Below are positions 53,048 to 62,056 of a stretch of 64,000 nucleotides of DNA, piece after piece. Every line of letters starts with the position of its first letter. Position 1 is the stretch's first letter. Origin of the DNA: Polyangium jinanense (GTDB taxonomy: Bacteria > Myxococcota > Polyangia > Polyangiales > Polyangiaceae); the NCBI RefSeq assembly GCF_028435365.1, contig NZ_JAGTJJ010000019.1:62001-126000 (forward strand), in the 5' to 3' direction. The position numbers and the translations under genes were made by a program. The notes under the pieces are model-generated. The model saw only the letters and a list, made by a program, of their open reading frames with translations, had not been told where the DNA came from and ran no database searches.

Positions 53048-55010
<1,963 letters not shown>

Positions 55011-56611: not shown

Positions 56612-57988
56612 CTATTTGAGGATCGTCTCGCAGCCGACCTGGATGTCGACCTTCGCATCGGTGGCGGCGCCGAGGCCCTCGCAGGCCTTGCCCAGGAGCT
56701 CAACCTTGCCATCCGGGGTGTAGTCCCAGCAGCCGTCCTGCGGGCACAAATCCAGCGGATCCGTGCGCTTCTTCAGGTTTTGTAGCATCCCGTCGAGCGT
56801 GAGGTTCACGTTGACCTGGTTCTTGTCGATCTGCTCGCCGGGCGGCGGGGGCGGCAGGTCGTAGATGCAGCCGAGCGCCTTGCCGCGGACGTCGGCGATC
56901 GCCTGGGCCAGCGCGTCGGCGTTGAACTGCGCGCCGTTCGAGAGATCGATATGGCAAGGTTTGGCAGGGGCGGCCCCCCCTTGCGTGAAGGTGGCGTCCT
57001 TCGAGCAGGCCGGATCCACGGTGTCCGGCGAGCCGCTGACGGCGTAGGTCGAGAGCGCGAGGAGCATGTTGTAGGGCGGCGTGGCGAACCCGTCGACGGC
57101 GACGCCCGTGCTGTTCGAGCCGGGCACGCCCACGATGAACGTGAAAATGGGCTTGTTCGGGTCGGTGCGCGCGGCCGCGATCAGCGTATTGACGCTGTCC
57201 GGGTACTCCCAGTCGGGGCAGCTGTAATCGTCGGCGTACCCGGGCCGGGTCGGGCTCGCGACGGAGGTGCACGAGAAGCCGCCGTCCGTGATCAAAACGA
57301 GCATGCGCCGGGCGATGTTCTCGGATTTCAGCGATTCGTAGCCGGCCCGGAGAGCGTCGTAAATCGGGGATCCGTCGTCGCCGTTGCTGAGCGGCGGATG
57401 GGCGACGAGCCAATCGTACATCTGGCGGCGCACGCCGGTCGGGGCGTTCGTCTTGTCTTTCCCGGCCGGCGCGACGGGCACCTGCGGCAGGACGGAGACG
57501 CCGCATGAGACACCCGGGGCGAGGAGGGCATTGCACGTCGCCTGATCGAGCCCCACATAGGCGCAAACGCAAGGCGGGGGGTTGACGAAGCTCGACGGAA
57601 AGACCGTGAGGCCGAGGGACATCGTATCGAAGACGTCCTTGTCGATGGCCGATTTGACCGCGAGTTGCGCCGTCCCCCACTTGGACGATTTGTTCATGCT
57701 GGCGCTCGCGTCGAGCACGGTGAGCATGGCCGCGGGCGCCTGCGTGGCCTCGGCCGTGAACTTCGCGCAAGCCGGGCCGCCGCCGCCCACGCCTCCGCCG
57801 AATCCACCAACGCCGCCGCCTCCAGGCCCGACAGGACCATTGCCCGATCCCCCCGAGCCATCCTCGCCGCCTTCTCCCCCGCTGCCAGGCCGACTGTTGC
57901 CGCCCGCCGCGCAGCCTCCCCCGAGCCCGATTCCAATCGAAACGAAAAGCCCCAGGCTCACGCCGAGCCACCGCAGAACGCGCCCCAT
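56612..57988 (-). CDS. VWA-domain surface lipoprotein
   Basis: Of 458 residues, the signal ends in lipobox GLGGGC near 26, followed by a Gly/Ser-rich linker to about 75. The VWA domain has MIDAS VLDASASMNKS near 92, SPIYDAL (Thr site region) and LITDGGFSC. Many Cys residues are present in VCAYVGLDQATC, SCPDW, PCHIDL and CPQDGCWDY. It is probably a metal-binding adhesion or scaffold protein on the surface. The linker type matches other lipoproteins of this strain. It is divergent from the GHKL ATPase pair, with a 190-base gap. Confidence 0.88.
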   Translation of the reverse strand: MGRVLRWLGVSLGLFVSIGIGLGGGCAAGGNSRPGSGGEGGEDGSGGSGNGPVGPGGGGVGGFGGGVGGGGPACAKFTAEATQAPAAMLTVLDASASMNKSSKWGTAQLAVKSAIDKDVFDTMSLGLTVFPSSFVNPPPCVCAYVGLDQATCNALLAPGVSCGVSVLPQVPVAPAGKDKTNAPTGVRRQMYDWLVAHPPLSNGDDGSPIYDALRAGYESLKSENIARRMLVLITDGGFSCTSVASPTRPGYADDYSCPDWEYPDSVNTLIAAARTDPNKPIFTFIVGVPGSNSTGVAVDGFATPPYNMLLALSTYAVSGSPDTVDPACSKDATFTQGGAAPAKPCHIDLSNGAQFNADALAQAIADVRGKALGCIYDLPPPPPGEQIDKNQVNVNLTLDGMLQNLKKRTDPLDLCPQDGCWDYTPDGKVELLGKACEGLGAATDAKVDIQVGCETILK

Positions 57989-58181: not shown

Positions 58182-59900
58182 ATGGCGACGGCACGCAGCG
58201 CTCCGGATTCCTCGCCCCTCGGGACGCCTCCGGCCGAGCAATCGGCGCACGCAGGGCCGTTCACGAGGACGCACATCGACCTCGCCGCAGCCCGCGCCGG
58301 CGGAATCGCCCGCGGCGGGGTGCGCGAGGGCGAGCTCTGCTTCCTGGGCTCGCTGCACGAGCTCGTCGCCATCGGGCTCTACCGGCCCGCACTCTCGGCG
58401 CTCGTCTCGGGCACCGGGACGCCGGCCCGCCCGCCGATGGATCGAGCCTACCTGCTCAAGATCCTCGATGAGGAGGTGGGCCGGCAGTTCGGCCACCCGC
58501 TGCGGCCGGTCGTCGAGCTCGTGCTGAACGCGATCGACGCGACACCCGAGCACCCCGCACGCGTGGACGTACGGGTGCGCGAGGGCGTGGTGACCGTGAC
58601 CGACGATGGGATCGGCATGGATCTGCGGACGATCCTGTCACGTCTGCTCGTGCCGTTCGCCACCGACAAGCGGCCAGGCCTGGACCTCGGGCGCTTCGGC
58701 GTGGGCTTCTTCTCGGTCATCGGCCTGGGGCTGCCCGATCCGGCCAGCCTGTCGATCGAGGTGGAGACGGGTGACGGTGCGTCGGGCTGGTCGCTGTCGG
58801 TGCTCGCCGACGGACCGGAGCCTTCATCGCTCATCTGCGCGATCCGCAGGCTCACGCCGCGCGCCGGGACGCGCGTGCAGGTGCGCTCGTCGCTCATCGA
58901 GGCCGAGTCGCTCCGCGCGTACCTGCGCGACGCGCTGCACTTCTTCCCGAAGGAGCGCGCGATCGTGAACCTCGACGGCGTGCCGTTGAACGACGGCCGT
59001 TACCTCTCGGGAGGCACGCACTTCACCGACCCGCTCGCGCCCGAGGATCCGAGTCGCGTCGCGCGCTTCTACGTGGGCGGCCGTTCGCTCGTGACGGGGA
59101 TCTGCGCCGCGACGTACCACGCCGGCGTGAAGGTCGAAGGCTGCCTAGCGATCCCGGAGCTCGCGCTGATCGACTTTCCCTCCGCGGTAGAGCTCACCGA
59201 GGGTCGCGACGCGCTCAAGCCTTGCCGCAACTTCCGCGCGACCGCGGCGGCGTTCTACCGCAAGCTCACGGACCTCGCCCGCGCCCCGGGGACGACCCGC
59301 AAGACAGCCGATCGCCTCGCGGAGGTCGCCGCGCAGATCAGCGCGCTGATGCTGCAATCCGCGGCGTGGAACGAGGTCGCGCCCGAGCTCGCGCGGGCCT
59401 TGCTCGGCCCCGATCGGTACCTCGTCGGGCCGGAGCGGCGCGAGCCTCTCATCGGCTTCCTCGGCAGCAACGTGGAGAGCCGGCTCTTCGTCCCCGAGAG
59501 CTTCTGGGCCGAACGCGAGTGGCAAGGGTTCATCCCCGGCGAGCGGGAGCTGCTCGCGCGCGAGCTCGAGATCGATCACGCCGAGAGCCTCTCGAGCCTC
59601 GCGCGTCGCCGCCCAGATCTGCCCGGGATCCTGGAGCTCGCGCGTCGATCCGAGCGGCCCGAGGCCGTCCCCGTGGCGCTCGCGCGCGGCCGCAAGAACG
59701 CGCCGGGTCCGCTGCCTTGCCTCGGGACACGTCATGCGCTGCTCGTGCGCGAGGACGCGCCTGCGGTCGCGCGGCGCGTGGGCTGGGCGGAGCAGTACGC
59801 GCTGCGCGTCGCGTTCGATCGCGCGACGGGCATGCGTGAACCGGATCTCGAGCGCGAGCTCATCGTCAGCGAGCCGATCGGGGTCATGGGAGCGGCGTAA
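58182..59900 (+). CDS. Hsp90-like GHKL ATPase, first of a pair
   Basis: ATG 58182 gives 572 residues; frames open far upstream overlap the divergent VWA gene and are not used, and the exact start is uncertain. The GHKL (Bergerat) motifs are all present: N-box ELVLNAIDAT with N116, G1 TDDGIGM (about 140-146) and G2 FGVGFFSVIGLG (about 172-183), with LLVPFATDK before it. A second ribosomal S5-like domain follows (YLRDALHFFPKERAIVNLDGVPLND), then a helical C-terminal half. No histidine-kinase, MutL or HtpG C-terminal features were seen. Length and plan match its neighbour, so the two are paralogues, 41 bases apart. Confidence 0.82.
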   Translation: MATARSAPDSSPLGTPPAEQSAHAGPFTRTHIDLAAARAGGIARGGVREGELCFLGSLHELVAIGLYRPALSALVSGTGTPARPPMDRAYLLKILDEEVGRQFGHPLRPVVELVLNAIDATPEHPARVDVRVREGVVTVTDDGIGMDLRTILSRLLVPFATDKRPGLDLGRFGVGFFSVIGLGLPDPASLSIEVETGDGASGWSLSVLADGPEPSSLICAIRRLTPRAGTRVQVRSSLIEAESLRAYLRDALHFFPKERAIVNLDGVPLNDGRYLSGGTHFTDPLAPEDPSRVARFYVGGRSLVTGICAATYHAGVKVEGCLAIPELALIDFPSAVELTEGRDALKPCRNFRATAAAFYRKLTDLARAPGTTRKTADRLAEVAAQISALMLQSAAWNEVAPELARALLGPDRYLVGPERREPLIGFLGSNVESRLFVPESFWAEREWQGFIPGERELLARELEIDHAESLSSLARRRPDLPGILELARRSERPEAVPVALARGRKNAPGPLPCLGTRHALLVREDAPAVARRVGWAEQYALRVAFDRATGMREPDLERELIVSEPIGVMGAA

Positions 59901-59941
59901 CCGAGCGCGCCTCGGACGGTGGGGAAATCAGGGGGGAACCG

Positions 59942-62056
59942 ATGACCGAAGTCTACGCTGGCCGTCTCTCGGACCTGCTCCTCGTACGCGTGCATGGTCG
60001 CTCCGCGGCCTACCTCGCGGCGAGTCGCGCGGCCCGCCCGGGCATCGTGGAGGCTTGCCGCAGAGAGGCGACGGTCCCCGATCTCGCCGAGCGGATCCTC
60101 TCTCGCACGATCTACGCGCAGAGCGCCTCGCGCATCGCGCCGCTGCGTGAGCTCGTGCAGAACGCGCTCGACGCCTCGCCGCGCGGCTCCGCGATCGACG
60201 TGCAGTCGGGCCTCGGCGGCACCGAGATCATCGTGACGGATCGCGGGCGCGGCATGACGGCCGACGAGGTCCTCGGCGATCTGCTCGTCCCGTTTCGCAG
60301 CGGCAAGGAAGGCGAGGAGCTCGCGATCGGCGAGCACGGCATCGGCTTCTTCAGCGCGCTCGAGATCGCGCCGCGGCTCGAGGTGAAGACACGCACGCGC
60401 ACCGAGGGCCACCTCCTGCGCGTCGAGCCACTCGGCAAGGGCCCGCCCTACGCCGATTTCGCCTGGTCACTTCGGCCGCTGCCGCACGTCGAGGGCTGGA
60501 CGGGCACGTCGGTGCGGCTCCTGCTCGACGAGCCGATCAGCCGCTCGGTCCTCGCCTCGGAGGTCGCTGCGGCCGCCTCGTTCGTCGATCCCGCCGTCGC
60601 TCGGATCTACGTCGACGGTGTGCTCATCAACGTCGCCCGCACGCGCATGCGCCGCGTCGCGCGCGCGCACGTCGCGGGCCCGCTCACCGGCCCACTTGGC
60701 GAGCTCTCGATCTGGGTCGGCCGCGGCGACGGCGCCTTGCCGCACGTCACGATCACGCAGCGCGGATTGCTCGTCGCGGTCCGCCAGGATCTCTTCACCG
60801 CGCCCGAGCTCTCGCTCCACCGCGACCTCGCGCGGGCGATCGTGTCGGCGGGCTTCGGCATCGTCGTCGAGCTGCCCGCCGAGGTGCCGCTCAACAAGGG
60901 TCGATCTGCGGTGGCCGCGCATGCATCCGCGGCCGTCGAGTCCGCGCTCATCGCGGCGTTCGAGCGCTTCGTGCTCCACGACGCGCTCTACGATCGCGAA
61001 CTCCTCCGCGCCGTGGATCATCGCCTCTCGTCGGTCCTCGATCGCCTGCTCTGTGCTGCGCTCGCGGGCCAGCCCACGCAGCCTGCGACGGCGAGCGCAC
61101 CCGAGGAGCTCACGGAGGCGACCCGCTCGTCGAAGCCCTGGCCGCTCATCACGCCGCCGAGCTCCGTGCCGCCGGAGTCCGAGCGACGACCGCAGCGGCG
61201 CCCCACGGTGGCCGCGCCCGAGGAGGTCGTGCGGTTCGCGGACGCGCTGCTCGACACGCCGGCCATCCGCGTGCTCACCATCGACGACGAGCACGAGCAG
61301 CACCCGCGCATCGTCACCTTGCGCCATCTTCTTGGCGCTTACCGTGCGGGCACGCTCCGGCCTATGGGCGAGCCGCAGCTGCCGGGTCGCACGTACATCT
61401 CGCTCGACGATCCGCTCGCGGACGCACTCTGGCGGCGGCTCGTCGCGACCTCCGCGGCGGCGGCGGCGGCGAGCTCGCAGGACCGTCGGGGCCGACGCAT
61501 CGGCGCGCTCGCGATGCAGCGCATCGATCGGGAGACCTTGCTCGCGACGGCGAAGGCGGTGCCGGGTGTCGATGCGCTCGCGGCGGCGATGACGGTGCTC
61601 GAGGGGATCGACGCGGCGATCTCGATCGCGGCGGAGCTCACGCCCTCGCCGATCTCGGTGCATCAGGATCTCTACGGCCCGGACGAGATGGCGCACACGG
61701 ACGGCAGCGGCATCAGCGTCAACCTCGCGTCGGCGCGGGTGCGTGCGCTGCTCGTGTCCGTGCTGCAGCAGGACGATCCGGCGGCGTTCGGGGCGCTCGT
61801 GGATCTGATGCTGCACGAGAAGACGCACGTCTCGCTTGCGAGTTACGTCCCGCATGCGAACGCTGAGCACGGGGCGAGTTTTTACCGGCGCAAGGATCTC
61901 CTGCGGCGACGGCTCCTCGAGTCGATGGCGCGGGGCCTCGTGGGCGATCCGTCCTCGTGGCTCCCGGCGGCGCGGCGTGGACTTTCGTCGGTTGCCCTAC
62001 CTGCGCCCGACGTCCTTGCTGCCACGTTCCAGTCCGTACCTTCGGTCGCTGCCTGA
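59942..62056 (+). CDS. Hsp90-like GHKL ATPase with C-terminal HExxH zincin-like domain
   Basis: The 704-residue protein has N-box ELVQNALDAS (E70, N74, D77), G1 DRGRGM (100-105) and G2 GEHGIGFFSAL (130-140). A second S5-like domain and a Pro/Ser-rich linker at about 380-425 follow. The C-terminal part has HEKTH at 625-629 and a third candidate ligand H643 in EHGASF, the spacing HExxH-x13-H seen in SprT/WLM-like zinc proteases. An ATP-driven conformational change may present a substrate to the protease; this is inference. The upstream paralogue lacks HExxH, so the two could form a heteromer. Confidence 0.83.
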   Translation: MTEVYAGRLSDLLLVRVHGRSAAYLAASRAARPGIVEACRREATVPDLAERILSRTIYAQSASRIAPLRELVQNALDASPRGSAIDVQSGLGGTEIIVTDRGRGMTADEVLGDLLVPFRSGKEGEELAIGEHGIGFFSALEIAPRLEVKTRTRTEGHLLRVEPLGKGPPYADFAWSLRPLPHVEGWTGTSVRLLLDEPISRSVLASEVAAAASFVDPAVARIYVDGVLINVARTRMRRVARAHVAGPLTGPLGELSIWVGRGDGALPHVTITQRGLLVAVRQDLFTAPELSLHRDLARAIVSAGFGIVVELPAEVPLNKGRSAVAAHASAAVESALIAAFERFVLHDALYDRELLRAVDHRLSSVLDRLLCAALAGQPTQPATASAPEELTEATRSSKPWPLITPPSSVPPESERRPQRRPTVAAPEEVVRFADALLDTPAIRVLTIDDEHEQHPRIVTLRHLLGAYRAGTLRPMGEPQLPGRTYISLDDPLADALWRRLVATSAAAAAASSQDRRGRRIGALAMQRIDRETLLATAKAVPGVDALAAAMTVLEGIDAAISIAAELTPSPISVHQDLYGPDEMAHTDGSGISVNLASARVRALLVSVLQQDDPAAFGALVDLMLHEKTHVSLASYVPHANAEHGASFYRRKDLLRRRLLESMARGLVGDPSSWLPAARRGLSSVALPAPDVLAATFQSVPSVAA

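What the first reader, a model, noticed from the sequence alone, without database searches (positions are those of the whole stretch)
58182..62056. Paired Hsp90-like ATPases, one fused to a SprT/WLM-like metalloprotease
Two adjacent paralogues each keep the full GHKL ATPase motifs (N-box, DxGxG, GxxGxG), and the second adds HEKTH and a third His 14 residues on (HExxH-x13-H). ATPases of this fold act as conformational clamps (Hsp90, MutL, MORC); coupling one to a zinc protease suggests ATP-gated proteolysis of a captured substrate. I know of no described system with this pair. The gene order, coupled strand and 41-bp gap imply one operon.
Basis: partly seen in the sequence, partly recalled or inferred. 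Interest (0 to 1): 0.88.

Follow-up and report, generated by a model that had tools for sequence, protein, structure and literature searches.

The report
Hsp90-like clamp with protease tail
A group of soil bacteria carries a conserved two-gene unit in which an Hsp90-like ATP-driven clamp protein appears to end in a zinc protease site and is made together with a related partner, a combination we have not found described and whose activity has not been tested here.

Summary
ORF1 (58182-59900, 572 aa) and ORF2 (59942-62056, 704 aa) each carry an Hsp90-type ATPase and middle domain. ORF2 ends in HExxH-x13-HG-x2-F, found in 107 of 111 database matches; three misses end or go out of frame before the site, one is a kinase. 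Of eight segments of ORF2 compared, the one round the motif is best conserved. Profile comparison puts it nearest SprT (31.4; best of 100 shuffles 19.8) and WLM (26.7; 19.5), not M48 or YgjP. All Pfam zincin matches are below cut-off and no zincin is among four weak solved-structure matches: the fold is probable, not shown. ORF1 lies directly upstream in 13 of 13 genomes where that side is visible; in seven, stop and start overlap as ATGA, which suggests translational coupling and a hetero-complex. ORF1 has no HExxH. ORF2 occurs in 14 of 108 genomes of the family, Polyangiaceae. Best reading: an Hsp90-type clamp whose C-terminal part is a zinc protease, gated by ATP and ORF1. Substrate and activity are unknown.

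The parts
58182..59900 (+). ORF1, 572 aa: Hsp90-type ATPase (from about residue 82) and middle domain; C-terminal region without HExxH
58515..58529 (+). ORF1 N-box (ELVLN: E112, N116)
   Evidence: coordinates checked; aligned with the HtpG N-box
59193..59213 (+). ORF1 LTEGRDA, invariant R342 at the place of the Hsp90 middle-domain arginine
59631..59897 (+). ORF1 C-terminal region, residues 484-572; the AlphaFold model aligns with full-length Hsp90 out to here in part of the rows, but profile comparison gives no signal
59942..62056 (+). ORF2, 704 aa: Hsp90-type ATPase and middle domain, variable linker, C-terminal HExxH domain
60149..60163 (+). ORF2 N-box (ELVQN: E70, N74)
60890..60910 (+). ORF2 LNKGRSA, invariant R321, aligned with ORF1 R342
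61082..61210 (+). ORF2 variable linker, residues 381-423, low confidence in the model
61499..62053 (+). ORF2 HExxH domain, residues 520-704
61661..61705 (+). Near-invariant stretch HQDLYGPDEMAHTDG (574-588) before the HExxH helix
61814..61828 (+). HEKTH, residues 625-629
61868..61882 (+). HGASF, residues 643-647: third His, Gly, aromatic residue

Best explanation
ORF2 is an Hsp90-type clamp (ATPase plus middle domain, supported by sequence and predicted structure) whose C-terminal part, the dimerisation domain in Hsp90, is a SprT/WLM-like zinc protease domain (probable). ORF1 is its paralogue (tree support 91/90) without the protease motif, encoded next to it with overlapping stop and start in seven genomes, and likely bound to it as a hetero-complex (inferred). 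By analogy with Hsp90, ATP binding would close the ATPase domains over a client held by the middle domains and bring it to the zinc site; hydrolysis would reopen the clamp (inferred). The substrate is unknown.
Against: No Pfam zincin family reaches its cut-off (WLM best 0.015 and SprT best 0.061, each in 2 of 16 rows), and an unrelated capsid family has a better value (0.0017, also 2 of 16). A profile of the domain finds no solved zincin. With HExxH masked the SprT score falls to 18.4, shuffle level, so the signal rests on the motif and its spacing; only 37 columns align. The M78 score (11.9) is a poor control, since only 4 of its 12 rows have HE..H. No coordinates were at hand to measure the zinc site; the loop before H643 has low confidence. 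No complex of ORF1 with ORF2 was modelled. One distant ORF1 homologue (P0231) has lost the N-box Asn and the glycine motif, so ATP binding by ORF1 may not always be needed.
Confidence: 0.55

Rival explanations
1. The HExxH site arose inside an Hsp90-type C-terminal dimerisation domain instead of coming from a SprT-like protease: same order of strands and helices, with a zinc site built on it.
For: Element order of the ORF2 C-terminus (three strands, then helices 598-610, 613-633, 645-664) resembles that of ORF1, and ORF1's model aligns with full-length Hsp90 to its end in 17 of the 50 rows shown (for instance 424 residues at 6.2 A). A low-threshold profile alignment puts ORF2's GISVN-RVRAL stretch on the matching stretch of other Hsp90-like proteins.
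Against: Scores of ORF2 against ORF1, HtpG and Hsp90-like C-terminal profiles are noise (at most 17.7), against 31.4 for SprT. The HG-x2-F after the third His is also seen in the SprT-like and WLM rows listed, in many but not all of them.
Confidence: 0.15
2. The pair is a DNA clamp with a protease, like MORC or MutL joined to SPRTN, that clears protein-DNA crosslinks.
Against: Pfam scans of 41 ORF2 and 39 ORF1 rows show no DNA-binding family beyond single-row chance values (RHH_1 0.062, HTH_IclR 9.9). The seven neighbouring frames scanned match no repair family. Sequence and structure rank Hsp90/TRAP1 first.
Confidence: 0.15
3. The HExxH is a structural or inactive metal site, and the pair is a chaperone only.
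For: All zincin family matches are below cut-off; no activity data exist here.
Against: The Glu of HExxH is kept along with the three His in every match that reaches the site in frame, the kinase aside. A purely structural site would not need it.
Confidence: 0.15

Closest known systems
Hsp90 / HtpG / TRAP1
   Same: GHKL ATPase, middle domain with its arginine, same order
   Different: No match to the Pfam HSP90 model; ORF2's C-terminal part carries HExxH; two different proteins encoded side by side; the nearest genome held has a separate true HtpG (G001)
SprT-like / WLM proteases (SPRTN, Wss1)
   Same: HExxH with a third His followed by Gly and, four residues after the His, an aromatic; nearest profile match of those tried
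   Different: Below Pfam cut-off; joined to an Hsp90-type clamp; 37 columns aligned with SprT
MORC and MutL GHKL clamps
   Same: ATPase fold, weaker match
   Different: No known zinc protease part (recalled)
Tiamat TmtA (PADLOC)
   Same: ATPase domain only, best 4.1e-9 over residues 61-150
   Different: The matches cover 68-89 positions of models of 1063-1655 positions

Membership tests
Hsp90 | GHKL ATPase motifs | tested here: met
Hsp90 | Middle domain with conserved arginine | tested here: met
   Profile alignment ORF1-HtpG and ORF2-ORF1; structures
Hsp90 | C-terminal dimerisation domain | tested here: inconclusive
   ORF1: structure alignment reaches the end in 17 of 50 rows without a gain in Z, profiles do not match. 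ORF2: noise
Hsp90 | Match to Pfam HSP90 (PF00183) | tested here: not met
   Not among matches up to E 10 for 41 ORF2 and 39 ORF1 rows
SprT-like / WLM | HExxH, third His, HG, aromatic residue | tested here: met
SprT-like / WLM | Pfam cut-off reached | tested here: not met
   Best E 0.061 and 0.015, 2 of 16 rows each
SprT-like / WLM | Zincin fold | tested here: inconclusive
   Order of elements fits; the search lists were filled by the Hsp90-like part
SprT-like / WLM | Zinc-dependent proteolysis | not testable with these tools
   needs protein
Tiamat (TmtA) | Match over the TmtA model beyond the ATPase | tested here: not met
   68-89 positions of models of 1063-1655, one stretch each

The most novel reading that the evidence does not exclude
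A new class of ATP-gated protease that runs on an Hsp90-type clamp instead of an AAA+ ring: a pair of paralogues encoded together in every genome where that could be seen, one with and one without the protease site, in which client capture by the Hsp90 chassis delivers the client to a zinc site at the place of the dimerisation domain.
Probability: 0.4. Interest if true: 0.9.

Novelty: new variant of a known kind. Interest (0 to 1): 0.72.

Why it matters
Known ATP-dependent proteases use AAA+ rings to unfold substrates (recalled). A protease driven by an Hsp90-type clamp would show a second way of coupling ATP to proteolysis, and a chaperone turned into an enzyme. It would also allow a direct test of whether Hsp90-type cycling can hand a client to an active site. 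The two-gene unit is small.

Tried and rejected
Chance HExxH: rejected by conservation. Genuine loss of the motif in P0106, P0109 and P0110: not accepted, as P0106 ends before the site and P0109 and P0110 run into out-of-frame-looking sequence before it (by eye). Pfam, NCBIfam and PADLOC on the whole proteins gave matches in the ATPase part and its edge only. A profile of the HExxH domain against solved structures gave four weak matches (E 0.3 to 1.2), none a zincin. A search for free-standing copies of the domain (proteins of about 0.55 to 1.75 times its length) gave 33 proteins, which by their similarity belong to this family, most on contigs under 3 kb. The domain in 282 genomes of the phylum: only the nearest relative, with at most 12 candidates scored per genome. 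Whole-model structure searches listed no zincin in the 50 rows shown each; one domain filled the lists, so this says nothing against it. Global profile alignments gave meaningless end overlaps. Defence-system reading: only ATPase-level similarity; the neighbours were scanned with Pfam, not with PADLOC. Mobile element: not supported, as the neighbourhood is partly kept between genera. Three passages of PMC7159879 (conflict systems in multicellular bacteria) were seen; the words Hsp90, HATPase, GHKL and HExxH do not occur in its text.

Full report
What is there. The window comes from a Polyangium: the stretch round the pair is syntenic with four named Polyangium records, whose ORF1 and ORF2 are 95-98% identical in protein. 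ORF1 (58182-59900, 572 aa) and ORF2 (59942-62056, 704 aa) lie on the + strand 41 bases apart. Upstream stand GroEL, a BrkB/YihY-type membrane protein, and, on the other strand, a DoxX gene and a gene with a sub-threshold von Willebrand match; downstream a frame of 141 aa without a match, a V4R gene and a Roadblock/LC7 gene.

Paralogues. In a tree of ATPase and first middle domain (39 rows), ORF1 and ORF2 each form one group (100/99) and are sisters at 91/90, with ten proteins of a second Hsp90-like family of Polyangiales outside and HtpG beyond that; an eleventh such protein (L048) falls with HtpG. The program warns that the stems of ORF1 and ORF2 are long.

The HExxH domain. HEKTH (625-629) and H643 with G644 and F647 recur in 107 of 111 matches to ORF2 (the letter before the second His varies), always 13 residues apart; the four misses are three proteins that end or go out of frame before the site and one kinase. 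The stretch 568-660 has a mean majority-residue fraction of 0.83 and 34 invariant positions of 93, against 0.70 for the ATPase (26 of 156) and for the first middle part; the other five segments are lower. In the model HExxH lies in helix 613-633, after strands 571-575, 584-586 and 591-594, and H643 stands just before helix 645-664, in a loop of low confidence. Profile against profile, residues 520-704 score 31.4 with 15 SprT-like rows from Myxococcota; 100 column-shuffled versions reach at most 19.8; masking HExxH leaves 18.4 and masking HG 25.9. WLM gives 26.7 (40 shuffles at most 19.5), YgjP 13.8 and M48 17.8, although all rows of the last two have HExxH; M78 gives 11.9, but only 4 of its 12 rows have the motif. 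In the same test these five zincin families score 22.5 to 90.8 with each other. Pfam agrees but weakly: WLM (0.015) and SprT-like (0.061) are the zincin matches, each in 2 of 16 rows, under cut-off; seven other families appear in the same list, one of them at 0.0017. I take the domain as a zincin of SprT/WLM type with about 80% confidence. The fold itself is not shown.

ORF1 C-terminus. It has no HExxH. In 17 of the 50 rows shown its model aligns with full-length Hsp90 over 411-434 residues at 6.2-7.8 A. That suggests an Hsp90-like C-terminal domain, but Z does not rise above that of ATPase and middle domain alone, and profiles do not confirm it.

The pair as a unit. In 14 of 108 genomes of the nearest genome's family (9 of 61 good ones; 5 of 48 genera) ORF2 is present, in one as a fragment at a contig start (10 candidates scored per genome). 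In the other 13 ORF1 is next to it on the same strand. The gap is 34-48 bases in six genomes of the nearest genome's genus, and in seven others stop and start overlap as ATGA. Such an overlap is the usual sign of translational coupling, so matched amounts of the two proteins, and a hetero-complex, are likely (inference). The named records with both are four Polyangium, three Sorangium, one Byssovorax MAG and Minicystis rosea; a tenth, Sorangium cellulosum So0008-312, starts inside ORF2. A genome with a contig of 11,388,132 bases is probably Chondromyces crocatus, since a protein of that name (P0039) lies on a contig of that length. The YihY-type gene lies upstream in the four Polyangium, the three Sorangium and that genome, there on the other strand; it was not found in the Minicystis stretch, and the Byssovorax contig ends too soon. 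This looks like a chromosomal, vertically kept locus (inference). In 115 genomes of the order, 34 match the ORF2 profile at 1e-10 but only five over the whole length; the other 29 match the ATPase and middle part only.

Mechanism. Supported: ATPase and middle domain of Hsp90 type, conserved protease-like motif, coupled genes, purifying selection (dN/dS 0.08-0.09 for ORF2, 0.11-0.17 for ORF1, 0.03-0.08 for the HExxH domain). Inferred: zinc, proteolysis, hetero-complex, ATP gating. Hsp90 closes its ATPase domains over a client on binding ATP and is held together by its C-terminal domains (recalled). Here that place holds the protease-like domain, so a closed clamp could put a client next to the zinc site, and ORF1 could supply the second half of the clamp. 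A distant pair, P0231 and P0105, both on a contig of 21,019 bases, fits an accessory role for ORF1: its ORF1 has lost the N-box Asn and the glycine motif while its ORF2 keeps all.

Known or new. Full-text searches that asked for Hsp90 or GHKL or HATPase together with zincin, HExxH, metallopeptidase or protease terms gave no paper with all terms. For looser combinations I saw the titles and abstract starts of 15 of 402 and 15 of 19 papers; none shows such a fusion. The library holds open-access papers only. The parts are known kinds; their combination, as far as these searches go, is not described. I therefore file it as a new variant of a known kind; with proven ATP-gated proteolysis it would be a new kind.

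Noticed in passing
L016-L025 (loci; open frames of 475-821 aa, L022 cut by its contig): A second Hsp90-like protein family in Polyangiales; a profile of nine of these aligns with HtpG along most of its length (99.6% probability, 455 columns), yet in the tree the ten group apart from HtpG, nearer ORF1 and ORF2.
   Followed up: partly
ORF2 residues 574-588, window 61661-61705: HQDLYGPDEMAHTDG is almost invariant, with two further invariant His (574, 585) upstream of HExxH; it may line the active site or bind a second metal.
   Followed up: no
   Followed up: partly
P0109 and P0110: Copies of ORF2 that run into out-of-frame-looking sequence before the HExxH; P0106 ends soon after the linker.
   Followed up: partly
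window 53382-55010: GroEL (542 aa) with a His-rich end ([11 protein letters not shown]) in place of the usual Gly-Met tail (the usual tail is recalled).
   Followed up: no
window 56612-57988: A gene with a sub-threshold von Willebrand match (0.0011) on the opposite strand directly upstream of ORF1, also beside the pair in Minicystis (54% identity).
   Followed up: partly
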